Shown here: positions 1 through 60,123 of the stretch, piece by piece | How the letters are laid out: each line of letters starts with the position of its first letter | How positions within the stretch are numbered: position 1 is the first letter of the stretch | Origin: Romanomermis culicivorax | Lineage: Eukaryota > Nematoda > Enoplea > Mermithida > Mermithidae | Assembly (NCBI GenBank): GCA_963922205.1 | Contig: CAWUHX010000069.1 | Location: 434,001-498,000 of the forward strand | Reading direction: 5' to 3' | DNA length: 64,000 nt | Program-made: the position numbers and the translations under genes | Notes under the pieces: generated by a model | What the model was told of the DNA's origin: nothing | The model's database searches: none | The model's input: the letters and a program-made list of their open reading frames with translations, nothing else

Positions 1-1
1 T

Positions 2-2053
2 TGCGCTCGGCTCAGCGAGCCGCTGACCAAGCTCTTACGGAAGGAAGTTACCTTCCAGTGGTCAAAACCTCAGCAGTCGGCGTTCGACGAACTCCGAAGG
101 CTGTTGTTGAACCCTCCTGTCCTGCGCCATCCGGACTTTACGAAATCCTTTATACTTCAAACTGATGCAAGTATTTCGGGGATAGGAGCAGTTTTAAGCC
201 AGTTGGACGAGAATGGATACGACCATCCTGTTGCGTACGCCAGTCGAGGGTTAACAGCAGCTGAGAAAAACTACACTATTACGGAGTTGGAGACTCTCGC
301 TGTTGTCCATTTCGTCAAGCACTTTCGGCCATACCTCTTTCAACATGAGGTGGTCGTTCAGACCGACCACACTGCTGTTAAGGCTGTGTTGGAAAAACCG
401 AACCCTTCGTCCCGGATAGCTCGGTGGGGCCTCGCGTTAGCTGAATTCAAACTGACTATTCGGCCGCGGAAAGGTCGGTCTAATGGTAATGCCGACGCAT
501 TATCACGCCTTCCTGATCCTAATTCCCTTGCCGGGGAGAGTATTGACGATATTCCCCTATACAGACCCGAGGGAGAAGTTATGATGATCTCCGATGGTGC
601 GCAGCGCCAGGCGAACTCATCCCAAAAGACCACCAATGGTGCGCAGCACCTGGCCAGGTCTGAGTCTTATGCAGAGATATCACAGGATGCGCAGCACCAT
701 GACTTTCTCGCAACTCAATTTGAGGATCCGGAATTAGCCTCCATTCTCAGGTCACTAAAACCCTACAGTGATCAGAATGATGTTAATGGCTACCACCTGT
801 TGGATAACATCCTTCAGAAGTGGACAGGCGAGTCCAACAAGATTGTTGTCCCTCGTTCAATGGTTACTACCATTATTGAGGCTCATCACAACGACATTCT
901 TGCTGGACACTTTGGTGCGAAACGTACCGCGAGGCTTATAGCCCGCAGGTACCACTGGCCTTCCCTCAGTGCAGACGTCAAGTCCTTTTGTCAGCAGTGT
1001 GATCTTTGCCAACGGAATAAGCCTGCGAGACAAAAGACACGTGCAACTCTGAAACCAATCTCCATTATGGGACCGTTTCATCGAGTCGGTGTCGACTGTA
1101 TGGGACCAATGACCACTAGTGAAAACGGAAACCGATTTATTGTAGTTTTTATAGACTACTTTACTAAATGGGTCGAAGCTTTCGCTACTCCGGACATTAC
1201 TGCGCAAACTATAGCTCGACTTTTTGTTACTCAAATTGTCTGCAGACATGGGGCACCGCAGATTCTTCAGTCTGATCGTGGTACTGATTTCACGTCCAAA
1301 CTGATGACTGAAATCACTGCCATTTGTTCAACTAAGAAAATCCACTCCACCGCTTATCATCCCATGACAAACGGAGAAGTGGAAAGAGCTAACCAAACGC
1401 TAGCCACACGGTTACGTATGTATGTCCACCAAGGTCATACTGATTGGGATGAACACCTGCCGTACTCTGTGTTCGCTGTCAACATTAGCATGAATGAGTC
1501 CACAGGGTATTCACCCTTTGAACTCATGTATGGCCGTACTCCCATGCTACCTGTTGATGCAGCGCTCTCATTCAACCCTCCGGCCCATATCATAGATGTT
1601 TTTACTTATGATATGGAGGTCAAACGGCATTTTACAAATGCCTTGACCTTGATCCAGAGCAGAATTGAGAGATCACAAGCGGCTTATGCCAGGTCTTACG
1701 ACCGCATGGCACGAGATGTCTCATACAAGGTTGGGGATCAAGTGCTCAAACTGCGCACTACTGGAAAACGTGGTCTAACGCCCAAATTTTTGCCCATTTA
1801 TGATGGCCCCTACCTTGTCACGAATGTGGCTTATCCTAATGTCACCATTCGACTTGAGACTGATCAAGAAGATACTGTGCATGTCAATCAGCTTAGACGC
1901 TACGTGTCACCAGCTCAGCCTACAGAAGAAGAGGAGATACCTTCCACTTCCCAGGTCATCGAGACGGCACCTTTGTTGATCCCGTCAACAAATAGAGATT
2001 TTACACAAGATCTCATTGACCCACATCTTGATGCGAAGGTCGCCGACCCGTAA
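2..2053 (+). CDS. pol: Pol polyprotein C-terminal part (RNase H, integrase), partial
   Basis: Open from the window edge, so the 5' end is missing; the visible part is about 683 codons. It starts at the end of the RT palm/connection region. RNase H follows, with the motif [14 protein letters not shown]. Integrase then shows the HHCC zinc-binding segment (two His, then CxxC before QRNK), the DDE core (Asp in GVDCMGPM, Asp in QSDRGTDF, Glu in GEVERANQ) and a GPY/F-type C-terminal module (DGPYLV). Its product would copy the element RNA to DNA and insert it. No frameshift or stop interrupts the visible part, so the copy looks young. It ends at TAA 2051-2053 with a short acidic tail. Confidence 0.93.
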   Translation, partial: CARLSEPLTKLLRKEVTFQWSKPQQSAFDELRRLLLNPPVLRHPDFTKSFILQTDASISGIGAVLSQLDENGYDHPVAYASRGLTAAEKNYTITELETLAVVHFVKHFRPYLFQHEVVVQTDHTAVKAVLEKPNPSSRIARWGLALAEFKLTIRPRKGRSNGNADALSRLPDPNSLAGESIDDIPLYRPEGEVMMISDGAQRQANSSQKTTNGAQHLARSESYAEISQDAQHHDFLATQFEDPELASILRSLKPYSDQNDVNGYHLLDNILQKWTGESNKIVVPRSMVTTIIEAHHNDILAGHFGAKRTARLIARRYHWPSLSADVKSFCQQCDLCQRNKPARQKTRATLKPISIMGPFHRVGVDCMGPMTTSENGNRFIVVFIDYFTKWVEAFATPDITAQTIARLFVTQIVCRHGAPQILQSDRGTDFTSKLMTEITAICSTKKIHSTAYHPMTNGEVERANQTLATRLRMYVHQGHTDWDEHLPYSVFAVNISMNESTGYSPFELMYGRTPMLPVDAALSFNPPAHIIDVFTYDMEVKRHFTNALTLIQSRIERSQAAYARSYDRMARDVSYKVGDQVLKLRTTGKRGLTPKFLPIYDGPYLVTNVAYPNVTIRLETDQEDTVHVNQLRRYVSPAQPTEEEEIPSTSQVIETAPLLIPSTNRDFTQDLIDPHLDAKVADP

Positions 2054-2513
2054 TCAAGTAGCTCTTCTCTTCTTTACTTACGGACGGGGTCGTCCTTTTT
2101 CGAAGGACCGCCATGCCCCTCACAAATTACCCACTTCTGTTCCAAGCTGGAATAGTAGTGTAAAGAAGAGAATGAGCAGCGATCAATGCATCTAAACTAG
2201 GGTATTGCTTCACATTGCAGGCGCATCCATGCGATAGCCTATATCTCGCCTCTAAAATTTTTCTTTTAGTCTCGTTTCAGATTTCACAAATCAACCGACA
2301 ATTGGCAACTTCACCGAAGGGATCAAATGACGTCAGCAACTTCACGCATCTCCAATGGACGTCAGCAACTCCACGCAACATTGACACAATTTCACAAACC
2401 AGAACATACCGAAAAACCACTGAACCAGCAACCGCTCGCCGCCACCCGCACCTGAACGTTTGACCGTCGCAGCCGGCACAAGGACGAGGACGCCCTTTTT
2501 CGAAGGACCGCCG

Positions 2514-3949
2514 TGTCACGTGCCGACGGATGTCGTCGAACGTCACGTGATTCACATCACAATTTTTCATTATGTTTTTCGTTATGTTTTGTGTTATAGT
2601 AATTTACATCAATTTTGCGTTTCGTTTTTATACTTTTTACATGCAATTTATGTGTGTACTTTTTATGTTTATTTCTGTTGCTTTTGCGCACATTTATTTC
2701 CGTCTCGATTTATTATTTTCAATCGCACACGTAGACTACGGTATGTGCCCGCTAGTCAAGAATTTCCGTTAAAGATAAGCTCTCCGAGCTCATCGCTGTA
2801 ATTAGAGCACAACGTGCACTTCTTATCAGTAAAAACTAGCGACGTTTCACAACGTGAAACGACTAGTTGAAATTCTTCACTAGTGACGTTCCTATGTTAA
2901 GCATGGAGAGTGAAAACTCGCCCCAATGCTTAACGTTGTGAACAGAAAATGTCTATGTGATCATAGGCATCTTCTGCAACGATTTCCGCTGCAGAAGTTA
3001 GCTTGGGGGAGTGTTAACTCCGCCCAAGGCATACTGTAGTCTATGGAGCCCTTTAAAAGGGCATGTTTTGTGTGTTTTTGGCACTCTCTTTGAGCCTAAC
3101 TGGTTTTTCGTCGTTTAGCTTCACGTCGCGTCCGCCGTCGATATTTTTTATATATTTTATTGTTGTCAACTGCGCCTTGCCGTACGTCGAATAAATTACC
3201 ATATTTTCGTCCCCGACCTACACACCTACACTTACACACGTCGCCTACAGTAACCCGACCGTAGGAACCCGTCACCGTCGCCGTTAGTGTAGAGACCCGT
3301 CGCCCCTCGCCGAGGAAACGTTAATTGTCGCCGCCTGCCATTTAGCAGCCGCCGAATCCCCACGCCGAATCGCTCGGAGTTCGTTCCCACATCGCCGTCC
3401 GTAGGACCCCGCGTTTGACCCCGAACCCGTCGCCCAGCGCCGAGTAACTTGAGAAGGAGTATCGTGAGTCCTCTCAGGGGTTATTGTTATTGAGGGTATA
3501 TTTGTGGGAGTCTCCCCTAAGCTAGTTTTCCCTCGGAAGGACCCTCAGTTAAGAAAGCCCTCAGACCCTTAAGGTCAGGGCCAATAAAGGGGATTTAGGT
3601 TAACAATCGGGTCCCCTACAGTAAGCCATTCTCCGAATGGCACCGTCCCCCATTCCGTAGAATGAGGATTAGGGATTGACACCCCCGACCCGGCCGCGTT
3701 GTCCATTATTCTACAGCATTAACCCCAGGACAAGGCCGAGGTACACCATAGGTTTACCTGTGGTAGTACCAGCTGGGTTGGGTTCCCGAAACAGAGAACA
3801 TTACTGGAGCCACCCCACGGGGTCACAGCATGTCACCTACCGTGTCATGGCCATGTTTCCTATGGGATATGGTACGGGTTTGCCCGTCAATGTGACTGAT
3901 CACCAATTTCAGTTAATGTGACATGGCTCCACCTCTGTTTAATGTGACA
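2514..3949 (+). repeat. LTR of the left copy (3' LTR)
   Basis: A 1436-bp LTR beginning TGTCACGTGCC and ending AATGTGACA, so the termini form the inverted pair TGTCAC/GTGACA with the usual TG..CA ends. It matches the LTRs at 16419-17855 and 31276-32712, with more differences than those two show to each other. It carries a CCCTTTAAAAGGG box (3049-3061) and an AATAAA polyadenylation signal (3190-3195). Several palindromes lie in its U3 part. Confidence 0.93.
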
Positions 3950-16414: not shown

Positions 16415-16952
16415 GTCATGTCACGTGCCGACGGATTTCGTCGAACGTCACGTGATTCACATCACAATTTTCCATTATGTTTTTCGTTATGTTTTGTGTT
16501 ACAGTAATTTACACCAATTTTGCGTTTCGCTTTTATACTTTTACATGCAATTTATGTGTGTACTTTTTATGTTTATTTCTGTTGCTTTTGCGCACATTTA
16601 TTTCCGTTTCGATTTATTATTTTCAATCGCACACGTAGACTACGGTATGTGCCCGCTAGTCAAGAATTTCCGTTAAAGATAAGCTCTCCGAGCTCATCGC
16701 TGTAATTAGAGCGCAACGTGCACTTCTTATCAGTAAAAACTAGCGACGTTTCACAACGTGAAACGACTAGTTGAAATTCTTCACTAGTGACGTTCCTATG
16801 TTAAGCATGGAGAGTGAAAACTCGCCCCAATGCTTAACGTTGTGAACTGAAAATGTCTATGTGATCATAGGCATCTTCTGCAACGATTTCCGCTGCAAAA
16901 GTTAGCTTGGGGGAGTGTTAACTCCGCCCAAGGCATACTGTAGTCTATGGAG

Positions 16953-16965
16953 CCCTTTAAAAGGG
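16953..16965 (+). promoter_or_regulatory. TATA-like box of the 5' LTR
   Basis: CCCTTTAAAAGGG is a perfect palindrome apart from its centre, with a TTTAAA core. It sits about 140 bases upstream of the AATAAA signal, as expected for a U3 promoter near the U3/R border. The same box is conserved in the other two LTRs (3049-3061, 31810-31822). The start site has not been mapped. Confidence 0.55.
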
Positions 16966-17095
16966 CATGTTTTGTGTGTTTTTGGCACTCTCTTTGAGCC
17001 TAACTGGTTTTTCGTCGTTTAGCTTCACGTCGCGTCCGCTGTCGATATTTTTATTATATTTTTATTGTTGTCAACTGCGTTGCCGTCACACGTCG

Positions 17096-17101
17096 AATAA
17101 A
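17096..17101 (+). terminator. AATAAA polyadenylation signal in the 5' LTR
   Basis: AATAAA within CGAATAAATTACC, conserved in all three LTRs (3190-3195, 31953-31958). In the 3' LTR it would specify the RNA end. A second AATAAA (GCCAATAAAGG, about 17490) lies far downstream and is less likely to be used. Confidence 0.55.
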
Positions 17102-17855
17102 TTACCATATTTTCGTCCCCGACCTACACACCTACACTTACACACGTCGCCTACAGTAACCCGACCGTAGGAACCCGTCGCCGTCGCCGTTAGTGTAGAG
17201 ACCCGTCGCCCCCTCGCCGAGGAAACGTTAGTGTCGCCGCCTGCCAATTAGCAGCCGCCGAATCCCCACGCCGAATCGCTCGGAGTTCGTTCCCACATCG
17301 CCGTCCGTAGGACCCCGCGTTTGACCCCGAACCCGTCGCCCAGCGCCGAGTAACTTGAGAAGGAGTATCGTGAGTCCTCTCAGGGGTTATTGTTATTGAG
17401 GGTATATTTGTGGGAGTCTCCCCTAAGCTAGTTTTCCCTCGGAAGGACCCTCAGTTAAGAAAGCCCTTAGACCCTTAAGGTCAGGGCCAATAAAGGGGAT
17501 TCAGGTTAATAATCGGGTCCCCTACAGTAAGCCATTCCTCGAATGGCACCGTCCCCCATTCCGTAGAATGAGGATTAGGGATTGACACCCCCGACCCGGC
17601 CGCGTTGTCCATTATTCTACAGCATTAACCCCAGGACAAGGCCGAGATACACCATAGGTTTACCTGTGGTAGTATCAGCTGGGTTGGGTTCCCGAAACAG
17701 AATACATTACTGGAGCCACCCCACGGGGTCACAGCATGTCACCTACCGTGTCATGGCCATGTTTCCTATGGGATGTGGTACGGGTTTGCCCGTCAATGTG
17801 ACTGATCACCACCTCTGTTTAATGTGACATGGCTCCACTTCTGTTTAATGTGACA

Positions 17856-17873
17856 TGGCGAGGCTGGAAAATC
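17856..17873 (+). promoter_or_regulatory. Primer-binding site for reverse transcription
   Basis: TGGCGAGGCTGGAAAATC follows the 5' LTR without a spacer. The leading TGG would pair with a tRNA 3' CCA. The implied tRNA end is AGCCTCG-CCA; I cannot assign the tRNA species from the sequence alone. Confidence 0.65.
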
Positions 17874-19248
17874 GACCTTTAAGTCTGACTCCACAGTCCT
17901 TGGGAACGAACCTTTTAACCTTTTGAGTGAGATACCTCTTTCAATTAGGTAAATTTTCCGATTTGAGTAGGGGAAACCTCCGTCAGATCATGGAATCGCC
18001 ACTTGAGTGGGGAAACCTCTCTCAGGTCTGCTGATTCGCTTCCAAAGTGGGACACTGACCCTTGGGATGAAATTTTGCCCTCATGTAAGTGGATACGCCC
18101 GTAAGAAGGTACACTGCCCCTTAGGTCGGAATAGGCCCTTATATTCGAGTTTAACGCCAACTCAGATAGCACCGCATTTGAGTAAAACTTAATTACTGTA
18201 GGTCGGGATTTGCCCCATGCATGATTAAATTAATGATTCTTGCGCGTAATTAACCCCTTATGAGTATAGTATCTCCCGTAAGCTTTGGTTAATCCTCTGG
18301 TATCGATTTTCCCCCAGTTTTGATCCCCAAGAGTCACAAAATTCCCAGAGTTGAGTAAATCGAGTATTCTGCCGTAATTCTCCTCTGAGCTTTTATTTTT
18401 CCTTCTGCTTTCTTTTTTTTTTCTCTTCTAATTTGGGCCTCCATCTACTGCGTGTGCTCTGACAGGTTACTGTAGCGCCTTAGGCCTTTTGGTTACAGTA
18501 TGACTGCGCGTTGCACATACTCTAACTACAGTATACCTGGGTACGGGTACTTGAGTATCACAGCCCATGAGGTTTTCACAGCCCCTGAGGGTTTCGGGAT
18601 CTCCGATCACGAGGTACAGTAACCCTTCCACTCTTGATTCTGGACGTCAAGTGTGGTTGTGAGTTGTTATCTGTGTCCGGTATGTGTGTCAACACACTTT
18701 TTTTTTTTTCAAAACTTTTCTTATCTTCACTGAGCACTAGCCAAGTTGCTCATTTTTCCGGCCAAACAAGCCAAAATTTTACTGTTGACACATATAACAC
18801 CGTACTTAGCAGATCACATCGCTTATCTCTAGGGCCTCAAATTTTAATTTTATTTACTTTCCTTTTATTTCTCGGTCTTCTATGCGTCGTGTGTGACCCA
18901 ATTAAAATAAATTTTTCACCTAATAAATTTTCTTATCTCCAAAATCAACTCAATAAAACTTATAACCCCATTTCCTTTTCTTTCCACTTTCTAAACAAAC
19001 AAATTAAAATTTATCCTTTTTCCTACCAAAAAAAAAACCCCAAACAAACAAAACATTCTCTTTTCACTTCTATTCAAATTTTCACCACCAAAACTTTTTC
19101 TTCACTGGTCACACATACGTCATAGTTGGCAAACCTTCAGTAGGTCATTCTTATTGTTTTTTTCCACTACTGTACGGTCGTCTTTCTTCTTTTATTTTTT
19201 ATTTCTGGGTGGTTGCAAGTGGTGAGGATGTTACCAATCAGGACCACT
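17874..19248 (+). other. Structured 5' leader of the retrotransposon, first part
   Basis: No convincing gene. From 17920 to about 18370 a series of short degenerate repeats can fold into small hairpins. Examples are GATTTGA...TCAGATC and ACTTGAG...CTCAGGT, each enclosing GGGGAAACCTC with a GAAA loop, and TTCCAAAG...CCTTGGGA. Paired positions differ between repeats but remain complementary, so RNA structure seems conserved rather than sequence. From 18400 to 19130 the DNA is pyrimidine- and A-rich. A 163-codon ORF there (18634-19125) has low-complexity composition and no recognisable product. Confidence 0.5.
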
Positions 19249-20070
19249 GGCGTCAGCAACAACTACATATTTGGGTTGTTGTTATGAGGTGTTGTGTCTT
19301 GTGCGACCCCACCTCTGACGTCCGCAACTACCTCACATGCTGCTGTTGCACTGAGGCTTGACTAGCGGGGTCATGCTCCTGACGTCAGCAATGGCCGCAT
19401 ATCAGGTGGTCATTAAGGGGTTGATGGTTCATCGTGTCCTCCCCCTGCGTCTGCAACAGCTGCATCCCTTGCTGTTGCTTTAAGGGGTGGGTGGCCCTCC
19501 GGCTCTACCTCTGACGTCAGCAATGGCAACGTAACAGGTTGTTATTGCAGGATGGTGACCGTATGGCACTGTCTTCCTGACATCTGCAACAGCAGAGGCT
19601 CGTGTTGTTGCACTAGGATTGGTCGATTATTTCGACTTCAGTCCTTGACGTCAGCAACAACAATGCACCGTATTGTTGTTCGTAGATGTGAGGCCTTACA
19701 AACCGCACATCTGGCGTCTGCAACAACTGCATCTCATATCATTGTCGTAGGATAACTGAGACTCAGCTATTACCTTTTGACGTCAGCAACGGCGATGCTC
19801 CGTGTTGTCGTAGCAAGGTTGCTGGCCTAGGGCCCTATCTACTGATGTCCACAATGATAAATCTCTATTCCAGTATCGGAATTAAGACTATACAGTCTTA
19901 TTCTGGCGTCAGCAACGGCGATGCCCCGTATTGCCGTAAAGAGTTTGTAGCCGTAGGCTCTTACTTTTGGCGTACGTACTGCAATATGAGATTATGGCAC
20001 TTACATCCCAGTTACCTGAGGTCAGCACCGAGTGTGGTGGTGTATATCACATCTTTTGACGTCAGCACCG
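19249..20070 (+). repeat. Tandem hairpin array, about 66-bp units, in the retrotransposon leader
   Basis: About 13-14 degenerate units, each opened by a variant of TGACGTCAGCAA, at about 19249, 19317, 19381, 19447, 19513, 19579, 19647, 19713, 19779, 19844, 19905, 19969, 20018 and 20058. Units alternate between GTCAGCAA and GTCTGCAA/GTCCGCAA versions, giving a dimer period of about 132 bp. After each opener is a stem-loop: ACGGCGAT...ATTGCCGT, CAACAAT...ATTGTTG, GCAACAGC...GCTGTTGC, CAAC...GTTG. Stem sequences change in a compensating way between units. TGACGTCA is also the CRE palindrome. The role is unknown; packaging, translation or transcription control are possible. Confidence 0.75.
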
Positions 20071-21920
20071 GGTTACTGTGGGTTCCCAAGATGCCACTTG
20101 AGTTCTAGGTGATGATTGTAGTATTATTTTCTCACCTACGGCTCTCGTTTAGGGTTGTGTCTGTGTGCTACCGGTGCCTGGGACACATCAGTAGACATGC
20201 TCACGCAACCTGAGATGCACTCGGTCCGTGGCACTGATCAAGTTGTCCGCAAGGGTAGCGGCACTGATGGATCAGCACGTGACTACTCTTCTAAGCTTTA
20301 ACTGTAGGTTCGAACGAGTTTACACTCGGCCTCAGCTGGGTTGGTTGTTCGACATACGCAACCGTTAGGCATTTGCAGTCAGTACTGCCTGTGTCTAACA
20401 ACTGCAAGGGTTGTCAATCTTCCTGTAAATTTCTTATCTAAATTCTCGCATTTCTTCTTCATATATGATCTTCTTTAGTGTTCCCACCAGAATTATTCCT
20501 CAGGAATTACGGCACAGCCACTGGTTGGGCCTAAGGTGTAAAAGACCCCCCTGTATTCCTTTCTTTACACTCAAACGCCTTCGTTAGCTGGCCTAATAAT
20601 GTCCGCACTAGAGTCGCCCTTAATCCTGAGTCCGCCTCCGTTGGTTTGTCCCTTAGCATAATATTACCGCTAGTCCGCCTAAGCGAAGGTGTTCGAGTCC
20701 GCCTAAACACGTTACAACTAAGTCCGCCTTAGCTCCTCACTTTACACTCATTTATTCGAGACAGACTGTACCCCTGATCTCAAGATGCGTTGAGCCTAGC
20801 CTCGATTCATAGGAGGAAGCCTGCATTTCCCCACCTCCACCACTGGCACAGCTGGGCCAAGGACCCCCATGCCCTTTTACTGACTGAGTGTGTCAGAATA
20901 GCACCTTGGTACCTGGTGCTCTTATATCTCAACTGGTGACCTGCGATCCTCACTTCATCTCAGTGAATGGAAACCCGGCCCCCAGCTGTATATAATACTC
21001 CTGGAGAGTTCCCGTTCAGTTCGAAACGCGCATTCTTGTTTTTGGGCACGGTTGTAGCATACATGCGAATGACGTCCTCCCGGGATCCTCCTGTCTAGTC
21101 ATCACACTTTTCAGAGTTCGCAATTGCTCCTAGTGAGTGAGGCCGATTGCGTAATAGTGCGATTCCCTTTGCGTAGTCTGGTTTGTAAACTAATTTTGTC
21201 CCTATCTATTAGCACCCACTAAGTTTACTTTAAGTTGTCCACCTTTTACTTATTAATTCTTAAGCTACTCCATGCGCTACTCCTGGTGAGTAGGACTTTG
21301 TCGGTTACGAGCCCTCCCATATCCCAAAGTTTGTAAACTAGTACAACGGACTTAACCTCCAGATAAAATTCCCTTTTGAGCGGGTTTATCCGTACGCCCT
21401 CACGTCGGTTCCTTAATTTTATGGTTTGGAATTCCACCACTTTCTTTCAAATGTATTATACTTTTGGTTCAAATAACCGGGTCTTGCCCCATTCATCTCT
21501 AAAGTTTGGGTATACTCCTCCCTCTCTTTACACTCGGGTTATCCCCTCTTTACCTTCATAGGTGACCAGATAAATTCCCTTCTGAGTCAACCTATTTCTC
21601 AGTCTGGCTGTTCTGAGAGCTAAAACCTTGTCCTTTTCTAGCCCCATCGCTGAGTGGCCGCTAGATATTGGAAAGAACAAGCGTTACAGCCTCAACACGC
21701 CGTCGCGCAAACGATCTCGTACTTCCCGCGCTTCCTCGCCACGTGACTACAAAAGTAACTCTTACTTTACTCCTACAAAATAGAGACACCTAGACGTTCC
21801 TGTCGACTTAGTACTAAGTTTGAACGGACAAGTGAACCACTCTCTATTCAGTTTGATCGAATAACTTCACAGGCACGATCATCAGTCTTAGATACCTTAC
21901 AGGAAGACGAATTCTCATCT
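20071..21920 (+). other. Retrotransposon leader, second part
   Basis: No supported gene. At 20590-20760 the phrase AGTCCGCCT recurs four to five times. From 21240 to 21620 short degenerate repeats of AAATTCCCTTYTGAG type resemble the hairpin units near 17950. The frame of gag is closed by TAA at 21756-21758, and no in-frame ATG lies between it and 21921. Confidence 0.45.
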
Positions 21921-22694
21921 ATGAAGTCAGAAATTGATTTACCTTCACAGATTGAGAATAAGGTCCAAGCTGCATTTGAAAATGCCCTTGGACCACTCAA
22001 CCAAAAGCTAGAGGCTATGAATGGCAGAAGGCACCCTCCTGTGTCCAGCTTCATGGCCCCTCCTGCCTTTTCAGGTGCTTTTGGTGAGTCCATAACGGAT
22101 TTTATATCCCACTTGACCGGCTTCTTTACACTTCAAGGGGTAACGGAAGCGGATCATGCATATAAAATTGCGTTTTTGGAGTCTTGCCTCACAGGTCCTG
22201 CTCTGGCATCCTACCGGGACTTTAGCAGTGGTACTCCGCAGCCTACCCGCTACGAAGAGTTCACAGCTTTTCCTAGGAGAGACTTTCCAGTAGGGCGTGA
22301 TTCAGATCTGCATCAGCAGTTGATCCAGGATCGCCTGCAGAAGCCGACTGAATCCGCGATAGTCTACCTTGAGCACCTTAAGAGACTGTCCAGGGTGGCT
22401 TATCCGGATCTCGCGACTGACGTTAGGGATTCTATTATTAAACCTATCTTTCTAAGAGGGTTGAGACCAGTCCTTAGAGATAGTATTAAGTTCAGGGAGT
22501 TCACAACTCTTGAAGAGACTCTCAAAGCAGCCTGCTACGCGGAATCACAGATTTTTCGGGATGAGATTAGGTATACTGCCCCATCTAATGCTGTTTTCTC
22601 TTCAGAACAAAGGACCGCCGACAACGTCAGGTCAATGTCGAATCAAAGGAGCACCGCTCAACGTCCGTCGGCCACGCCGTCCGACGAGGTTTGA
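21921..22694 (+). CDS. gag: Gag, matrix/capsid part (257 residues), ends at TGA
   Basis: Gag builds the virus-like particle that packages element RNA in the cytoplasm. The ORF starts at the first ATG after an in-frame stop at 21756 and encodes a typical retrotransposon Gag: a short coiled N-terminus (IENKVQAAFENAL), then FSGAFGESITDFISHLTGFF, then CLTGPALASYRDF and YLEHLKRLSRVAYPDL. The last two correspond to the conserved capsid helices of Ty3/gypsy Gag. No zinc knuckle is present before TGA at 22692-22694. The knuckles lie just downstream in the same frame (22710 ORF), so the stop separates capsid from nucleocapsid. The stop context is TGA-C, a leaky type. Either readthrough or a nonsense mutation explains it. 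Confidence 0.85.
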   Translation: MKSEIDLPSQIENKVQAAFENALGPLNQKLEAMNGRRHPPVSSFMAPPAFSGAFGESITDFISHLTGFFTLQGVTEADHAYKIAFLESCLTGPALASYRDFSSGTPQPTRYEEFTAFPRRDFPVGRDSDLHQQLIQDRLQKPTESAIVYLEHLKRLSRVAYPDLATDVRDSIIKPIFLRGLRPVLRDSIKFREFTTLEETLKAACYAESQIFRDEIRYTAPSNAVFSSEQRTADNVRSMSNQRSTAQRPSATPSDEV

Positions 22695-22709
22695 CGTTTA
22701 CAATCGGAG

Positions 22710-25700
22710 ATGGCCCGGCTCACGGCTCATGTTGCACGACTTACGGCTCAGCAATCGGCGCCACCTTCGAGAAATTCGACGCCGTCATCGACGCCGTCGA
22801 CGCGTGTCCAGGCCGCCGGCGATCGCCCGTCAGGGGCACATCTACAGATGTGCTCCTACCATGGACGCTGCACCCACAACGACGCTACTTGCCGGGCACA
22901 AAATCCCGATAGCGCCGGCCCTAGCACCGCCTCCGCCACCGGCGCCAGCCGTTGCTATTTTTGTCGAACGAGGGCGCACCCGACTGACCGATGCGACAGA
23001 CCCTGCCCGCATTGCCGAAAATTACGAGTGCACCGGGCAACAGCTTGCCCCAATCGAAATTCGACACTGCCTGGTGAGACTAATTTTGGTAACTCTGGTT
23101 ATTCTCCTCAGGGGGCAAGTGGAAATTTTCGGAGGTATGCTAATCCAACTCCTCACGGGATAGGGAACCAATATCGGTCACCTCCACGGCAGAATAATGC
23201 TGTAGGGGTTACCGACGGTCTTCTTCACCCAGATTTATTTGATCTGGATGATGAAGTTTTGGCTGAACACCTGGCGGATCGCTCACAACTGTGTTATCCT
23301 GTCTGTGTAATCAGTATTGGTTTTTCAGCTACGGCAGCAGTTTCGGCGACCCCATTGTCGAATTTTCCGCTGCCACCACCGAAATACGCGACGCCGGTCA
23401 ATGTAAACCCGTCAGCGACACCGAAGACGACTGGCGACGTCAGCGTAATCGCGTCGTATCGACCGACGGAAGGTACAACGGCGCCACCGGCACGTGTTAT
23501 CAACCAGGGACCGCCGCCCGGAATTCCCACGGACTCCGCGTTGGAGGTCGTCGGTCAACTGGAATCGATGAATCTGATAGGTAAACTGCCTTCTTTTTCT
23601 GAAGTTTCAAGTTCACAAAGTAGATATCTTTACAAGTCTCCGGCTTTACTGATTTCTTGCTTACAGATTCCTCATCCGTCACCGACGCGATGCGGGCTGT
23701 TTGGTCAACCGACTTGGCCAAAAAGTATCCGCACCTCCCCTGGGCGCTACTCAACGAGCCGTTCGAGGTTGAGGCGCTTACGGCCGCCGACGTCATGCTA
23801 TCGGCACCGGCGGTGTTGCGGATTTTGGGACCCGACGTCGCTCGACGGGCGCTCGAGTTTATCGCCGACGGAACTATTCGCGCCACCCCGGTGGACAAGA
23901 TCCTGTTGGACGGTGAACCGTCGTCGCCGGCAGTGGACGCCGTCCGCCGCGCTGTGGAGAGGGCCAGTCGCAACGTGCGGCCCACAGCGGTTGTTGCCAC
24001 GTCACCGACAACAACGACGACGGGAGCCCAAACTTTGGCGGCGATTGCGCCCCAGCAACCGGTCGCCAACGCCTTTGGAGAACCGTTGCCCGCCGTTCAC
24101 AACGCCGTCAACGTCACCGAGGCGTCGCCATTCCCGACGGCTACCGTCCCGCGGTCCCCGAAGATTGGCGTTCTTCCAGAAGTCCACCCCGGAGGAGGCT
24201 TGGTCATCGACTTCCCCGGAGAGGAGCCCGCGTCGTCCGACGACGACGACGTCGAAGAATGAAGCCGCCCGACGGGTGAAAAATGTAAATTTTGGTGTAA
24301 ATTTGCAGACGCCATTTGTAAATATTTTGTTTGTATTAAATTGGGCCTTCGTGACACTACTGTTCTTAGGAATGAGCTCTGCAACACATGCTACTCAATA
24401 CCAATTTTGTGGTCTTTCAAGAAGCGGTCATCCACTTGAGCTACCTCAAAAAGTTGAATGCAAACCACCAAAATCTTCGTGGAGTCCACGACGCATGAAC
24501 GTTACAGTATATGTACCTATTTCTGATCCAATCACGACTAAAGCATGGAAATGTACCCTACGGAATCGGAAGGTATGCACAAACACTGGTTTTTTTGGAT
24601 CTAGGGGCATTACTGCGGACGTCATTACTACTCAGCACCTCGCGCCTGCGGCGTGTACACTAGCACATCGCACAAAGGTGTTTGGTTTACAAAAGCTCGT
24701 GGAAATACGTCCTGGCTTTTATAGCACTAACCAAACACTGGAGGTGATGTACTCATGGTGCTGCAATGACGTCTGCAAGACAGTGACTAACCTTTTCATC
24801 GAGGAGGGACAGGTCGCTTCGTGGGATGGCACTACAGCTCTAAGTACCTTAGGAGATGTAGGTGGATGCAGTCCCACTGCAGGTCAATGCACTACTCTAG
24901 ACGGGGTAATTGTTTGGCCTGCCACAAACTTTACAGCACAGTGCCATTATCGGCCACAGGGTAATTACACTGCGTCTGTATCAGGGAACCACATCATCAT
25001 CGATGATTTGCAGGTTGCCCTGAAGATCCCGGGAAACTCTCGTGTGTTTCGACTGTGTCCTGACCTCCGGTTGAATACAGTACGAACGGATCAGGGTCTT
25101 CTTCTACGCATCCACGGAAGATTTAATCTGACCCAAAGGTTATTCGGATTGGCAAAGGACTCCGTCCCTGACCCCGTCAATGCCAAACTGAATTACCTGG
25201 CTCAGCAGATCAAAGAGTCGGAAATTAACAATTTTCGATTCATGTGGCTAGAGTTGTGTTCTCACGCTCAACGCTACCTTGATCTGACTTGGCAGTTGCT
25301 TCGTTTTGACCCTACACTAGGAGCCCGGGCATTCCTTCAGCGGAATGACCTGATGGCGGAATTTACGGGTGAAGCACTGACAATATGGCCGTGTCAAAAG
25401 GTCAACGCCACTTATGTCTATCATTCGTACCGAGTGGGAGACACCTGTTACAAGTATCTACCCGTACAGGTTGGCGGTACCATTTATTTTGCCACCCCCG
25501 GCGGCCCAGATCTCACTAAATTCAGTCCAAGGGTGCCGTGTGACCACCACTTCACAGGGATTTTCCGAAATCACTCTGGCTGGTTTACTGAATCTGGCAC
25601 GGTCCATGTGAGCCACATTCCGCTTGAGCTGTTCTGGAAGCAGCGCTTCAACGTCACTCACTTTGACGCTCCGGCGCTCTTTCATGATCAGTTGGCGATG

Positions 25701-28700
25701 ACCCCTTCAAGTTTTGCTTTCTTTAAACAGTACGTTTACAAGACTGAGCAAATTGAAGCAGTCTTGAACCGGTTGGTAAACTATACAGCTGGTTTATCCC
25801 TACAACCAGATACTCTGTACCAGGCGGTTGCAGGGGTAGGGACTGACATCAGAGCCTCACTGGAAGGTGTTGGTCTGGCAGCAAACCATGTGATTACTGG
25901 TCAGCAGCACAACCTCATGCAAGGCTTACAGTCTCTCTTGAGCGGACCAGTGCAGCTAATCTTTAACACACTTATTGCCCTGGCAGTACTGGCCAGTACA
26001 GGATTTCTCATCTACGTTGGGATCTCCTATTACCTCAGCTACCGCCTGCGGAAAAGACAGGTTCGGTTTGTTAGCCAATACTCTCCGTTGAACCTCCTCC
26101 GGAAAGTTCAGCGTTGGGTAGGTTTTCATTACGTACAGAACGATGTGCCAACTCAGTTAGACAGGATCACTCCGTGTTTTGTTGTACTGGTTGACCACAA
26201 GGAAACTCCAGCTTTCCTTGATACTGGTTGTCCACGGACTATTATTAGTCAACACCTTCACAAAGCGCTGATCAAAGAAAGTCCGAAGGCGGCAATGGCT
26301 TTCCAGCAACATCACGACTTTAATCCATTGATGAGTATCAATGGTAAAGCCGTACATACTCTCCTTTCAGGACCGTATGAGATAATGTTGCCTGGGACCC
26401 GTCAGCCACACACACGAGTGGATATACATCTCCATGTGTGTAAGACTACGTCTCCTTTCTGGGCACCGGTCGATCTGATTCTTGGATTGGACTTTTTAGA
26501 ACAATTCCAGAATATTACGTTTGACTACCAACAACATGTCTGTCGATTGAATGCAGTAGAACTACCACTTCTGTTGACAGCAGCTGAGATTGATCAGATC
26601 GAACCCTGGTGGGAGAACACACGTTCACTATCAAGGGCCTCCCACAGGTCCGGGTCTCAATCAAGGTCCAGGACTTCGTCCCTTTCTCGGCCACACTCGC
26701 GAGCTTCCTCCATTGCCTCATCCCGTGGGTCAACCAGAGGAAGTAGGACCTCTTCTAGGCGGACTAGTGGTCATTCCATGGCCAGGCCAGGGTCAAACTG
26801 TCCTCGACCACCGCCTGGAAATTCTCCAATTACACTGGAGAAAGGCCGTTTTCGCGAGCCTAGTGATTCTGATGCACCTGCATCCCCTGTACTAGAGGTG
26901 CCACCACTCTCTGATGTTGAGGTTGAATCACTAGGAGCTACTCAGAGCTCAGGAGAAAGGTCAGATCATGTACTCAGTGTTCAGGTCCATCCGACTCCTG
27001 AGGCCAATCCGGAAACATCGGTTGGCTATGCTCTGGTAGGTTTGCTCCGACGCACTGGTTTACCTATACCTAGGCGAACCAATGCGCCAGAGTCGAGCTT
27101 TGATGACTCTGTACCTGACCCAGGTCATGTAGTATCAGCTTTCTACCCCACTGAGATGAGGACCCCTCATATCAAGGTTCTACTGAACAATTGGGTAGAG
27201 GCCAAAGCTCTAATTGATACTGGAGCAGTTTTCTCGCTCCTAGATCACAAGTTGGCGGTCCAGTTACCCGACTTGGTACTCACAGAGACTAGGGCTCGCC
27301 CCATAGCAGCCAATGGGTCCCCGATTCTACTGCTAGGCTCTGCCTATGTCACGGTGACAGTGGCTGATGTCTCTGAACGGATTCAAGTCCAGGTTCAAGA
27401 GAATTGTTCAGCGGAACTAGTCTTGGGGACGAACTTCCTCGGACGTTTCAATTGCGTCAGTTTGAGCTGGGAGAAATCCTTTCTCCAGTTCAAGGAACTT
27501 CGAGTTCCGTGTGAAGGCCTCATCCACAATCCACCTTCTGCTCGTGGGGCGCTACCCTTGCAGGAGTTGATTGTCCTTGAGCCTCGCTCGCTAACACAAT
27601 TCACTGCACCCGTACCTTCAATATATGCAACTGTACCCGAAGTAGCTTTCTTCCCTAAGCCTCTTTTGGGTCAGCAACGCCATGTATACTTTGCTGGTAC
27701 TGTGAGTACTGTGACCAATGGTCGCATACCCCTACAGGTAGTTAACCCAAGCACACACGCAGTGGTTCTCTACCCACACACGACCATCGGTCATGTGCAG
27801 ATGCACACTGATTCCTCACAGGGATCGGCGGTCAAGGCTGATACCATTCTTGACCGTAAGTGGGTTGAAGCCAATGCTGTGATATCTTCAGATATCTCCT
27901 CACAGGATAAAACAGCGTTGCTCGATCTGCTGGTCGCATTTACTGACCTCTACGCGGTTGATGAAAAGGACACAGGTTCCACTGACCTCGTGCACCATGA
28001 GATCAGCACGGGTGACGCTCGCCCAGTCCGCCGTTTCCCTTACCACACCGCGCCCAAGGAAAAGGATCTCATCATACAAGAGGTCAAAGCGCTCCAAGAG
28101 AAAGGTATTATTCGGCCTAGCACTTCTCCCTGGGCTACTAACACCGTTTTGGTTCGCAAGAAAAATGGGTCACACTGGATGTGTGTTGATTTTCGTGGTC
28201 TCAACGAGGTCACGAAAAAGGATGTCTACCCTCTCCCACGGATTGATGACATCCTGGACACACTCAAGGGTATGAAATACTTCACTACCCTTGACCAGGC
28301 TAACGCCTACTGGTCCATACCTATTGCCGAGGCAGACAAGGAAAAAACGGCGTTTAATACACCTATTGGACTCTACGAGTTCAACTATCTGCCTTTTGGT
28401 CTCTGCAATGCCCCTGGGACGTTTCAACGCCTCATGGATCTGCTTCTTACAGGACTGCAGTGGCGCACTGCACTGACCTATCTCGATGACATCTTGGTGT
28501 TCGGGAACTCTCACACCCAGATGCTTGAGCGCCTGACGGATGTGTTTACGCGTCTCCGTCAGGGTGGAATGAAGCTCAGACTGAGCAAGTGCAAATTTTC
28601 GCACTCTGAGGTAGAATATCTCGGGTACCGCATCTCACAGAAAGGTCTCGAACCAGACAAAGTCAAATTGGCTGCCGTCCAGGATCTACCCATTCCACAA

Positions 28701-30815
28701 AACGCTAAGGACATCAAGTCTTTTCTTGGTCTTGTGTCTTATTACAGGCGTTTCATCCCTGGTTGCGCTCGGCTCAGCGAGCCGCTGACCAAGCTCTTAC
28801 GGAAGGAAGTTACCTTCCAGTGGTCAAAACCTCAGCAATCGGCGTTCGACGAACTCCGAAGGCTGTTGTTGAACCCTCCTGTCCTGCGCCATCCGGACTT
28901 TACGAAATCCTTTATACTTCAAACGGATGCAAGTATTTCGGGGATAGGAGCAGTTCTAAGCCAGTTGGACGAGAATGGATACGACCATCCTGTTGCGTAC
29001 GCCAGTCGAGGGTTAACAGCAGCTGAGAAAAACTACACTATTACCGAGTTGGAGACTCTCGCTGTTGTCCATTTTGTCAAGCACTTTCGGCCATACCTTT
29101 TTCAACATGAGGTGGTCGTTCAGACCGACCACACTGCTGTTAAGGCAGTGTTGGAAAAACCGAACCCTTCGTCCCGGATAGCTCGGTGGGGCCTCGCGTT
29201 AGCTGAATTCAAACTGACTATTCAGCCGCGGAAAGGTCGGTCTAATGGTAATGCCGACGCATTATCACGCCTTCCTGATCCTAATTCCCTTGCCGGGGAG
29301 AGTATTGACGATATTCCCCTATACAGACCCGAGGGAGAAGTTATGATGATTTCCGATGGTGCTCAGCGCCTGGCGAACTCATCCCAAAGGACCACCAATG
29401 GTGCGCAGCACCTGGCCAGGTCTGAGTCTTATGCAGAGATATCACAGGATGCGCAGCACCATGACCTTCTCGCAACTCAATTCAAGGATCCGGACTTAGC
29501 CTCCATTCTCAGGTCACTAAACCCCTACGGTGATCAGAATGATGTTAATGGCTACCACCTGTTGGATAACATCCTTCAGAAGTGGACAGGCGAGTCCAAC
29601 AAGATTGTTGTCCCTCGTTCAATGGTTACTACCATTATTGAGGCTCATCACAATGACATTCTTGCTGGACACTTTGGTGCGAAACGTACCGCGAGGCTTA
29701 TAGCCCGCAGGTACCACTGGCATTCCCTCAGTGCGGACGTCAAGTCCTTTTGTCAGCAGTGTGATCTTTGCCAAGGGAATAAACCTGCGAGACAGAAGAC
29801 CCGTGCAACTCTGAAACCGATCTCCATTATGGGTCCGTTTCATCGAGTCGGTGTCGACTGTATGGGACCAATGACCACTAGTGAAAACGGAAACCGATTC
29901 ATTGTAGTTTTCATCGACTACTTTACTAAATGGGTTGAAGCTTTCGCTACTCCGGACATTACTGCGCAAACCATAGCTCGACTTTTTGTTACTCAAATTG
30001 TCTGCAGACATGGGGCACCGCAGATTCTTCAGTCTGATCGTGGTACTGATTTCACGTCCAAACTGATGACTGAAATCACTGCCATTTGTTCAACGAAGAA
30101 AATCCACTCCACCGCTTATCATCCCATGACAAACGGAGAGGTGGAAAGAGCTAACCAAACGCTAGCCACACGGTTACGTATGTATGTCCACCAAGGTCAT
30201 ACTGATTGGGATGAACACCTGCCGTACTCTGTGTTCGCTGTCAACATTAGCATGAATGAGTCCACAGGGTATTCACCCTTTGAACTCATGTATGGTCGTA
30301 CTCCCATGCTACCTGTTGATGCAGCACTCTCATTCAACCCTCCGGCCCATATCATAGATGTTTCCACTTATGATATGGAGGTCAAACGGCATTTTACAAA
30401 TGCCTTGACCTTGATCCAGAGCAGAATTGAGAGATCACAGGCGGCTTATGCTAGGTCCTACGACCGCATGGCACGAGATGTCTCATACAAGGTTGGGGAT
30501 CAAGTGCTCAAACTGCGCACTACTGGAAAACGTGGTCTGACGCCCAAATTATTGCCCATTTATGATGGCCCCTACCTTGTCACGAATGTGGCTTATCCTA
30601 ATGTCACTATTCGACTTGAGACTGATCAAGAAGATACTGTGCATGTCAATCAGCTCAGACGCTACGTGTCACCAGCTCAGCCTGCAGAAGAAGAGGAGAT
30701 ACCTTCCACTTCCCAGGTCATCGAGACGGCACCTTTGTTGATCCCGTCAACAAATAGAGATTTTACACAAGATCTCATTGACCCACATCTTGATGCGGAG
30801 GTCGCCGACCCGTAA
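22710..30815 (+). CDS. pol: Polyprotein: nucleocapsid, Env-like, two proteases, RT, RNase H, integrase
   Basis: A 2701-codon ORF in the same frame as gag; the sense codons after the TGA begin at 22695. Rough residue positions: three tandem zinc knuckles about 50-125 (CX2HX4HX4C, CX2CX4HX4C, CX2CX5HX4C); a Pro/Thr-rich stretch; an Arg/Ser/Pro-rich segment about 310-520 that is the off-frame reading of a better coding frame; an Env-like glycoprotein about 534-1140; retropepsin 1 with DTGC (1171) and ILGLDFL (about 1257); an SR-rich linker about 1300-1355; retropepsin 2 with DTGA (1503) and LVLGTNFL (about 1571); RT about 1763-2000 with YLDD (1924-1927); RNase H from about 2065; integrase with HHCC (from about 2312), DDE core (about 2382, 2443, 2477) and GPY/F module (about 2610). 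No frameshift interrupts RT to integrase, so activity is plausible. Expression as one 2701-residue chain is unlikely; readthrough, splicing and proteolysis are inferred. Confidence 0.9.
23667..24262 (+). CDS. Second-frame exon reached by a predicted 86-nt intron in the retrotransposon
   Basis: Within the long ORF, 23581-23666 is a textbook intron: donor GATAG/GTAAAC and acceptor TTTCTTGCTTACAG. Exon 1 ends in phase 1. Joining to 23667 enters the +2 frame, which stays open to TGA at 24260-24262 and encodes about 198 residues after the junction. This frame looks protein-like ([30 protein letters not shown], acidic C-terminus DDDDVEE) and its third positions are GC-rich. The unspliced frame over the same bases gives an implausible Arg/Ser/Pro/Trp-rich string. 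Spliced RNA would make a Gag-like protein with zinc knuckles plus this C-terminal domain. The product has no recognised family. The same frame also has an ORF start at 23657, inside the intron. Confidence 0.65.
24309..26130 (+). other. env: Env-like membrane glycoprotein region of the polyprotein
   Basis: Begins with a hydrophobic, signal-peptide-like run ([17 protein letters not shown]) after a splice-acceptor-like TTTGCAG at 24302-24308. That acceptor is in phase 0, so a spliced env mRNA could supply a start codon. The ectodomain of about 530 residues has many cysteines and at least nine N-glycosylation sequons (for example near 24502, 24935, 24964 and 25122). A transmembrane segment ([18 protein letters not shown]) lies at about 25970-26025, followed by a basic RLRKRQ stop-transfer. 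A GFFGS segment between cysteines and a CYKYLPV motif remind me of chuvirus-type glycoproteins captured by other LTR elements; this is a tentative family guess. It is fused in frame upstream of protease. Confidence 0.75.
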
Positions 30816-31275
30816 TCAAGTAGCCCTTCTCTTCTTTACTTACGGACGGGGTCGTCCTTTTTCGAAGGACCGCCGTGCCCCTCACAAAATACTCACTTCT
30901 GTTCCAAGCCGGAGTAGCAGTGTAAAGAAGAGATTGAGCAGCGATCAATGCATCTAAACTAGGGTATTGCTTCACATTGCAGGCGCATCCATGCGATAGC
31001 CTATATCTCGCCTCTAAAATTTTTCTTCTAGTCTCGTTTCAGATTCCACAAATCAACCGACAATTGGCAACTTCACCGAAGGGATCAAATGACGTCAGCA
31101 ACTTCACGCATCTCCAATGGACGTCAGCAACTCCACGCAACATTGACACAATTCCACAAACCAGAACATACCGAAAAACCACTGAACCAGCAACCGCTCG
31201 CCGTCACCCTCACCTGAACGTTTGACCGTCGCAGCCGGCACAAGGACGAGGACGCCCTTTTTCGAAGGACCGCCG
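30816..31275 (+). other. 3' untranslated region of the retrotransposon
   Basis: No gene. Two copies of the leader motif GACGTCAGCAACT reappear about 32 bases apart (31091-31103 and 31121-31133), as they do in the left copy near 2329-2371. A purine-rich run AAGGACGAGGACG lies about 25 bases before the 3' LTR and is the only polypurine-tract candidate I see. It is weak and not adjacent to the LTR. Confidence 0.55.
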
Positions 31276-32712
31276 TGTCACGTGCCGACGGATTTCGTCG
31301 AACGTCACGTGATTCACATCACAATTTTCCATTATGTTTTTCGTTATGTTTTGTGTTACAGTAATTTACACCAATTTTGCGTTTCGCTTTTATACTTTTA
31401 CATGCAATTTATGTGTGTACTTTTTATGTTTATTTCTGTTGCTTTTGCGCACATTTATTTCCGTTTCGATTTATTATTTTCAATCGCACACGTAGACTAC
31501 GGTATGTGCCCGCTAGTCAAGAATTTCCGTTAAAGATAAGCTCTCCGAGCTCATCGCTGTAATTAGAGCGCAACGTGCACTTCTTATCAGTAAAAACTAG
31601 CGACGTTTCACAACGTGAAACGACTAGTTGAAATTCTTCACTAGTGATGTTCCTATGTTAAGCATGGAGAGTGAAAACTCGCCCCAATGCTTAACGTTGT
31701 GAACTGAAAATGTCTATGTGATCATAGGCATCTTCTGCAACGATTTCCGCTGCAAAAGTTAGCTTGGGGGAGTGTTAACTCCGCCCAAGGCATACTGTAG
31801 TCTATGGAGCCCTTTAAAAGGGCATGTTTTGTGTGTTTTTGGCACTCTCTTTGAGCCTAACTGGTTTTTCGTCGTTTAGCTTCACGTCGCGTCCGCCGTC
31901 GATATTTTTATTATATTTTTATTGTTGTCAACTGCGTTGCCGTCACACGTCGAATAAATTACCATATTTTCGTCCCCGACCTACACACCTACACTTACAC
32001 ACGTCGCCTACAGTAACCCGACCGTAGGAACCCGTCGCCGTCGCGGTTAGTGTAGAGACCCGTCGCCCCCTCGCCGAGGAAACGTTAGTGTCGCCGCCTG
32101 CCAATTAGCAGCCGCCGAATCCCCACGCCGAATCGCTCGGAGTTCGTTCCCACATCGCCGTCCGTAGGACCCCGCGTTTGACCCCGAACCCGTCGCCCAG
32201 CGCCGAGTAACTTGAGAAGGAGTATCGTGAGTCCTCTCAGGGGTTATTGTTATTGAGGGTATATTTGTGGGAGTCTCCCCTAAGCTAGTTTTCCCTCGGA
32301 AGGACCCTCAGTTAAGAAAGCCCTTAGACCCTTAAGGTCAGGGCCAATAAAGGGGATTCAGGTTAACAATCGGGTCCCCTACAGTAAGCCATTCCTCGAA
32401 TGGCACCGTCCCCCATTCCGTAGAATGAGGATTAGGGATTGACACCCCCGACCCGGCCGCGTTGTCCATTATTCTACAGCATTAACCCCAGGACAAGGCC
32501 GAGATACACCATAGGTTTACCTGTGGTAGTATCAGCTGGGTTGGGTTCCCGAAACAGAATACATTACTGGAGCCACCCCACGGGGTCACAGCATGTCACC
32601 TACCGTGTCATGGCCATGTTTCCTATGGGATGTGGTACGGGTTTGCCCGTCAATGTGACTGATCACCACCTCTGTTTAATGTGACATGGCTCCACTTCTG
32701 TTTAATGTGACA
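31276..32712 (+). repeat. 3' LTR of the complete retrotransposon
   Basis: 1437 bp, same ends as the 5' LTR (TGTCACGTG...AATGTGACA). About four substitutions relative to it are visible (for example GTGATGTTCC versus GTGACGTTCC and TAACAATC versus TAATAATC). It carries the TATA-like box (31810-31822) and AATAAA (31953-31958). The flank begins GTCA, matching the target duplication. Confidence 0.95.
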
Positions 32713-32716
32713 GTCA

Positions 32717-59553: not shown

Positions 59554-60022
59554 CGTGAAGTCATCAGCGTCCATATCGGTCAAGCCGGTGTTCAAATGGG
59601 CAACGCCTGTTGGGAGTTGTACTGTTTGGAGCACGGTATCACTCCCGACGGTAAAATGCCATCGGATAAAACGGCGACCAACGACGATTCGTTCAACACG
59701 TTCTTCAGCGAAACGGGTAACGGTGGTCACGTGCCGCGCGCAATATTCGTTGACTTGGAACCGACTGTGATTGGTAAATGAGCTTTTCTGAAACTGATGT
59801 ACTTTTTTTGGTGAAATCTAGTTCTCCGTCCGTATTATTTAGACGAAGTCCGCACCGGCACCTACAAACAATTGTTCCATCCTGAACAAATGATCACCGG
59901 CAAAGAAGACGCGGCTAACAACTACGCTCGCGGTCATTATACGATTGGCAAAGAAATTATCGATTTGGTTCTGGATCGTATTCGTCGTTTGTCCGACAAT
60001 TGTACCGGTTTGCAAGGATTTC
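59554..60022 (+). CDS. Alpha-tubulin, N-terminal part, cut by a gap
   Basis: Alpha-tubulin pairs with beta-tubulin to build microtubules. Two exons are visible, 59554-59773 and 59843-60022, joined in phase (GTG ATT G / AC GAA). The first starts at an acceptor (TTCTTAAAG) with [20 protein letters not shown], so the initiating Met is alone or nearly alone on an upstream exon, as in many tubulin genes. Alpha-specific features include [14 protein letters not shown], the loop [34 protein letters not shown] and [16 protein letters not shown]. About 130 of roughly 450 residues are present. The gene stops at GLQGF where the N run starts and does not resume after it. Confidence 0.95.
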
Positions 60023-60122
60023 NNNNNNNNNNNNNNNNNNNNNNNNNNNNNNNNNNNNNNNNNNNNNNNNNNNNNNNNNNNNNNNNNNNNNNNNNNNNNN
60101 NNNNNNNNNNNNNNNNNNNNNN
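60023..60122. other. Assembly gap of exactly 100 N
   Basis: Fixed-size gap in the middle of a tubulin exon. The sequence after it is unrelated to tubulin, so the join or the gap size cannot be trusted. Confidence 0.99.
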
Positions 60123-60123
60123 A

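What the first reader, a model, noticed from the sequence alone, without database searches (positions are those of the whole stretch)
22710..30815. Env-like glycoprotein fused inside the polyprotein, upstream of protease and RT
In known Env-bearing LTR elements and retroviruses, env lies 3' of pol. Here a region with signal peptide, glycosylation sequons, many cysteines and one transmembrane helix sits between the zinc knuckles and the proteases, in one uninterrupted frame with RT and integrase. No env ORF follows pol (only 460 bases remain before the LTR). The order gag-NC-env-PR-PR-RT-RH-IN would imply a different way of making glycoprotein and polymerase.
Basis: partly seen in the sequence, partly recalled or inferred. 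Interest (0 to 1): 0.9.

Follow-up and report, generated by a model that had tools for sequence, protein, structure and literature searches.

The report
Retroelement with envelope before polymerase
A virus-like jumping gene carries its cell-entry protein in the middle of its main protein instead of at the end, and distant relatives share this layout, which points to an uncommon but stable way of building a retrovirus-like element.

Summary
Window 16419-32712 is a 16.3 kb Ty3/gypsy-type LTR element (LTRs 99.7% identical, 4-bp target duplication). [quoted passage not shown] only 460 bases then remain before the LTR, in both window copies. The glycoprotein matches Pfam Monjiviricetes_fusion (E 3.8e-17) and its model resembles class III fusogens (herpesvirus gB, mononegavirus and chuvirus G). 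Eight public polyproteins, 35-37% identical in Env, all place Env upstream of RT in one ORF, and Env and pol trees largely agree. So the order is an old, stable architecture, not one odd copy. It is not unprecedented: planarian Burro elements were reported in 2019 with env in frame between gag and pol (PMC6431247). Caveats: the gag capsid is a separate ORF ending at a stop; about 200 codons before Env score as coding in another frame; how Env is made (membrane-threaded polyprotein or spliced mRNA) is inferred; the host genome search did not complete. Verdict: new variant of a known kind.

The parts
16415..16418 (.). target site duplication GTCA (other copy at 32713-32716)
   Evidence: read
16419..17855 (+). 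5' LTR, 1437 bp
17856..21920 (+). long leader without a recognised gene; carries repeated TGACGTCAGCAA motifs
21921..22694 (+). ORF1, gag capsid (257 aa), ends at TGA
   Evidence: Ty3_capsid E 1e-6, 28.8 bits against cut-off 29.1; BLASTP to 7 of 8 relatives
22710..30815 (+). ORF2, 2701 aa, NC-Env-PR-PR-RT-RH-IN
22851..23048 (+). three zinc-knuckle-like motifs
   Evidence: motif patterns
23657..24262 (+). overlapping ORF in another frame (201 aa, acidic C-terminus), possible accessory product
   Evidence: no Pfam hit and no match in relatives
24315..24392 (+). internal signal-peptide-like segment
   Evidence: hydrophobicity; end point placed by the recalled -3,-1 rule
24393..25949 (+). Env ectodomain, class III fusogen-like; Pfam PF24664 match at 25176-25622
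25956..26012 (+). transmembrane helix, positive side towards Pol
26169..26549 (+). first protease-like domain (PR1, DTG at residue 1171)
   Evidence: weak; limits approximate
27177..27446 (+). second protease (PR2)
   Evidence: gag-asp_proteas E 1e-10
28155..28634 (+). reverse transcriptase
   Evidence: RVT_1 E 2.9e-33
28896..29210 (+). RNase H
   Evidence: RT_RNaseH E 3.3e-36
29610..30125 (+). integrase (zinc-binding domain and core)
   Evidence: Integrase_H2C2 E 3.6e-19, rve E 1.3e-8
31276..32712 (+). 3' LTR
1..3949 (+). second, partial copy: 3' half of pol (ORF 104-2053) and LTR 2514-3949
   Evidence: 97.5% identity; dN/dS 0.14 over 649 codons

Best explanation
A recently inserted, provirus-like Ty3/gypsy element from an old lineage in which a class III fusion glycoprotein, related to those of mononegaviruses and chuviruses, sits between nucleocapsid and protease. 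Most likely working: the RNA is translated into a chain that threads the ER membrane twice. The internal signal peptide sends the Env part into the lumen and the TM helix stops transfer, so Gag and PR-RT-RH-IN both stay on the cytosolic side. Host signal peptidase would free Gag from Env; the element's own protease, placed after the TM, would free Pol from Env's tail in budding particles. Pol would thus reach particles as the cytoplasmic tail of Env, with no separate env gene. Shown by sequence: order, domains, fold class, topology signals, conservation. Inferred: translation as one chain, the cleavages, budding and infectivity. In this copy the gag capsid is a separate ORF, so readthrough, reinitiation or splicing would be needed as well, unless this copy is damaged there.
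For: LTRs 99.7% identical with target duplication; pol under purifying selection between the two window copies, dN/dS 0.14. Env is a fusogen homologue by Pfam and by fold. Same order in 8 of 8 polyproteins (Pfam), with gag in the same ORF in 7 of 8. A hydrophobic segment stands before Env in nine of nine (seven by scan, P0007, P0010 by eye) and a TM behind it in nine of nine, more positive after it than before in nine of nine. Env and pol trees share 4 of 6 splits, P=0.0012 by label permutation; 5 of 5 without P0008. In the window element the nearest Met upstream of the signal segment is 249 residues away, so Env has no evident start codon of its own.
Against: No RNA or protein data. A stop separates gag capsid from ORF2 here. 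Part of the linker scores as coding in another frame. AU tests reject exact identity of the env and pol trees (p=0.007 and 0.038). In P0009, P0007 and P0011 a Met lies 4, 17 and 22 residues before the hydrophobic segment, so internal initiation is possible there. P0004 is an Env-only protein of 536 aa. The model is of moderate quality (pLDDT 65.6, pTM 0.36).
Confidence: 0.55

Rival explanations
1. The order is the same, but Env is made from a spliced subgenomic mRNA: a 5' exon supplies the start codon and joins at an acceptor just before the signal peptide. The overlapping ORF 23657-24262 would be another spliced product, and the long ORF is in part an open overlap.
For: Acceptor-like sequences, by eye, end near 24308 and near 23668; GTRAG-type donor-like sites exist in the leader and gag (11 matches from 17856 to 24400); the linker scores as coding in another frame; known env genes of retroviruses are spliced (PMC10309623, passage).
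Against: In 8 of 8 relatives the frame is open from upstream domains through Env into Pol, which separate spliced products would not need. Splice motifs of this kind are common by chance, and no test was made.
Confidence: 0.35
2. The fusion is a dead end: Env became fused to Pol in a degrading copy and is not used.
For: A stop between gag capsid and ORF2; only one copy in the window covers Env.
Against: Eight other polyproteins have the order; 2701 open codons; LTRs 99.7% identical.
Confidence: 0.06
3. Assembly artefact or chance rearrangement in this copy.
For: The host assembly could not be searched.
Against: The same order in eight proteins from other contigs and several sources; intact LTRs and target duplication.
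Confidence: 0.02

Closest known systems
Burro giant gypsy-like LTR elements of planarians (PMC6431247, section 7 read in full)
   Same: Gypsy-type pol; gag with zinc knuckles at the N-terminus; env in frame between gag and pol; env region with hits to mononegavirus fusion glycoproteins.
   Different: Burro exceeds 30 kb and carries extra domains (such as BCL2, BIR and MATH) and a dUTPase between PR and RT; the window element is 16.3 kb, shows none of these by Pfam and has a second protease-like domain. No Burro sequence was at hand to compare.
Anakin: BEL/Pao elements of mosquitoes with a chuvirus-type glycoprotein (PMC7642597, passages)
   Same: An LTR element that took a glycoprotein of the same virus group.
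   Different: BEL/Pao, not gypsy. The passages seen do not state where the glycoprotein lies in Anakin.
Errantiviruses and other envelope-carrying gypsy elements (PMC13172572, passages)
   Same: Gypsy elements with an envelope; that paper says some gypsy elements of mosquitoes have type III fusion glycoproteins.
   Different: Env is a separate ORF in other gypsy-like elements according to PMC6431247.
Class III fusion glycoproteins (herpesvirus gB, mononegavirus and chuvirus G)
   Same: Pfam PF24664 and predicted fold.
   Different: 12-17% identity to gB in the listed VIA alignments; carried inside a retroelement polyprotein.

Membership tests
Ty3/gypsy (Metaviridae) | LTRs, and pol in the order PR-RT-RH-IN with a gypsy-type RT, RNase H and integrase | tested here: met
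   LTRs; Pfam RVT_1, RT_RNaseH, Integrase_H2C2, rve in order; Ty3_capsid on ORF1 just below cut-off. A profile of alignment A2, whose pol columns come from the relatives, has Ty3-G Gag-Pol as its best PDB match.
Burro elements | env in frame between gag and pol | tested here: met
   note that the gag capsid is cut off by a stop, with the NC motifs in ORF2
Burro elements | giant size with apoptosis and ubiquitin-type extra domains | tested here: not met
   16.3 kb; no such domain above cut-off by Pfam; one BH4 hit within the RT piece, E 0.0047, below cut-off
Burro elements | sequence kinship with Burro | not tested
   no Burro sequence at hand
Anakin (BEL/Pao) | BEL/Pao-type pol | tested here: not met
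   Pfam gives gypsy-type families
Errantivirus | env as a separate ORF 3' of pol | tested here: not met
   460 bases, longest ATG-started ORF 42 aa, in 2 of 2 copies
Class III fusion glycoprotein | sequence homology to a class III family | tested here: met
   PF24664 E 3.8e-17, above cut-off
Class III fusion glycoprotein | class III fold | tested here: met
Class III fusion glycoprotein | fuses membranes | not testable with these tools
   needs an assay

The most novel reading that the evidence does not exclude
A deep, so far unnamed lineage of retrovirus-like elements makes Gag, Env and Pol as one chain threaded twice through the ER membrane, with Pol carried as the cytoplasmic tail of a class III Env and cut free by a protease next to the membrane. 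In the window element a second protease-like domain and an overlapping reading frame are part of that scheme. This would be another way, beside frameshift or readthrough Gag-Pol and a separate Pol message, of getting polymerase into particles.
Probability: 0.4. Interest if true: 0.8.

Novelty: new variant of a known kind. Interest (0 to 1): 0.6.

Why it matters
Retroviruses keep env as a separate, spliced gene and ration Pol by frameshift, readthrough or a separate message (general knowledge). A stable Gag-Env-Pol fusion in diverged elements would show that neither separation is obligatory and would give a testable route for packaging Pol through Env's tail. It also extends an arrangement reported for planarian Burro to a wider and apparently old group, and ties its Env to the class III fusogens.

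Tried and rejected
Host genome: the genome search 'own' did not answer in any of 15 calls, so other copies, the gag stop and the overlapping frame could not be compared; this is the largest gap. IMG/VR was scanned with the Env alone, with alignment A1 and with the window RT-IN piece, and GTDB genomes with A2: no relative confirmed. PDB by sequence with the Env alone: no hit. The first structure model, with 3 sequences, was too poor (pLDDT 48.5) and was not used. Rfam on the window at gathering thresholds: nothing.

Considered and rejected: single-copy accident (eight relatives); env 3' of pol (460 bases, 2 of 2 copies); BEL/Pao membership; filing it as Burro (size and extra domains not met, sequence not compared); Troyka (its LTRs end CG..CG and it has no envelope, PMC12440569 abstract and section 12; here TG..CA). 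A frame-1 ORF over the NC region (22510-23163) was looked at. It scores better than ORF2's frame over 22821-23120, but ORF2's frame carries the zinc-knuckle motifs, so I take frame 1 as chance; this is a judgement, not a test.

Results against the reading: AU tests reject exact identity of the env and pol trees. P0008 shows no gag match, carries a helicase upstream of Env, and its place differs between the trees. P0007 shows no Pfam protease at E 0.01, only a DTG motif and a BLASTP match (1.7e-5). The protease hits of P0010 and P0011 are below Pfam's cut-offs. In P0009, P0007 and P0011 a Met stands 4 to 22 residues before the hydrophobic segment. The searches used a region holding Env and PR and a length window, so they favour fused polyproteins and cannot say how common other orders are. 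P0004 (536 aa, Env only) was left out of the trees.

Literature: nine searches. Burro was found in PMC6431247 (passages, then section 7 in full). Chary and Hayashi 2025 (eLife 108449), seen only as a citation in PMC13172572, is not held and may describe the same order; novelty is judged without it. Passages only were seen of PMC7642597, PMC10309623, PMC10084718, PMC13172572 and PMC5408684; of PMC12440569 the abstract, one section and passages.

Full report
What is there. The window holds a 16,294-bp LTR element at 16419-32712. Its LTRs are 1437 bp and 99.72% identical, start TGTCAC, end GTGACA, and are flanked by GTCA on both sides. A second copy, cut by the window edge, covers the 3' half of pol and an LTR at 1-3949 with 97.5% identity. 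Over 649 shared codons the two differ by 31.5 synonymous and 14.5 non-synonymous changes, dN/dS 0.14, so the family has been copying with pol under constraint.

Coding layout. ORF1 (21921-22694) is a Ty3-type capsid (Ty3_capsid E 1e-6, just below its cut-off) and matches the N-terminal part of 7 of 8 relatives. It stops at TGA; 15 bases on, in the same frame, ORF2 (22710-30815) begins. [quoted passage not shown] After integrase 460 bases remain before the LTR in both copies; the longest ATG-started ORF there is 42 aa.

Conservation of the order. A search with the Env-PR part of ORF2 gave one protein, P0005, among 4688 candidates; a search with the same part of P0005 gave eight among 5256, P0005 included. 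In 8 of 8 the Env lies upstream of RT, RNase H and IN in one ORF. A protease lies between them by Pfam at E 0.01 in 7 of 8 (two of them below cut-off), and by motif and BLASTP in P0007. Gag is in the same ORF in 7 of 8. P0008 instead has a superfamily 1 helicase upstream of Env, and P0007 has a dUTPase there. The searches favour fused polyproteins by design: they show that the order recurs, not how common other orders are. Identity to the window element is 35-37% in Env and 35-48% in RT-IN. Env and pol trees of the nine share 4 of 6 splits (P=0.0012 by permuting labels). AU tests reject full identity both ways (p=0.007 and 0.038); without P0008 the topologies are the same, 5 of 5 splits. Env and pol have therefore mostly travelled together.

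How it may work. In all nine, Env has a hydrophobic segment in front and one TM behind, with more positive charge after the TM than before it (P0010's front segment was seen by eye). This puts Gag and Pol on the same, cytosolic side and Env outside, as a threaded polyprotein requires. In the window element the nearest Met upstream of the signal segment is 249 residues away; in three relatives it is 4 to 22 away, so internal starts are possible there. A host cut at the signal peptide and an element cut after the TM would give Gag, Env and Pol. This is inference; a spliced env message is the main rival.

A complication. Between NC and Env, frame 2 (ORF 23657-24262) has the better codon scores and ORF2's frame scores negative over 23721-24170 (the codon model was trained on the rest of ORF2). 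Synonymous shuffling of the frame-2 ORF leaves ORF2's frame open in 0.16-0.18% of 20,000 trials, against 4.5% the other way round. Either both frames are used or one is open by composition. Several such tests were made, and only copies from the host genome can decide. The genome tool did not complete.

Known or new. PMC10084718 (2023) says its survey found no clear capture of such glycoproteins by Gypsy elements (passage). The window element shares Burro's order but not its size or extra domains, and no sequence comparison was possible. I rate it a new variant of a known kind: a smaller form with two protease-like domains, set within a diverged nine-member group. A 2025 eLife paper on envelope-carrying elements across animals was not available and could lower the novelty further.

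Noticed in passing
window 19248-20068, 31090-31130, 2328-2368: The bZIP/CRE-like 12-mer TGACGTCAGCAA (up to 1 mismatch) occurs 13 times against 0.37 expected; 8 in the non-coding leader, 2 before the 3' LTR, 2 at the same place of copy 2, 1 inside Env. It may be an enhancer array.
   Followed up: partly
window 30856-30877 and 31256-31277 (2094 and 2494 in copy 2): A 22-base motif occurs twice 400 bases apart in each copy (one of four with 1 mismatch), the second straddling the start of the 3' LTR; no ordinary polypurine tract is seen there.
   Followed up: partly
P0008 residues 583-1002; P0007 residues 622-742: Related polyproteins carry a superfamily 1 helicase (P0008) and a dUTPase (P0007) upstream of Env: a variable cargo slot between gag and env.
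   Followed up: no
window 26169-27446; P0008 about residues 1848-2080: Two protease-like domains in the window element and two protease stretches in P0008, which lie apart in both trees, so perhaps doubled twice; those of P0008 read DCG instead of DTG.
   Followed up: partly
window 8416-8967 and 59872-60336: Host-gene fragments: a Med26/TFIIS-N domain and a tubulin fragment.
   Followed up: no
window 35308-35716: A nearly perfect (TTTTC)n array of 82 units.
   Followed up: no
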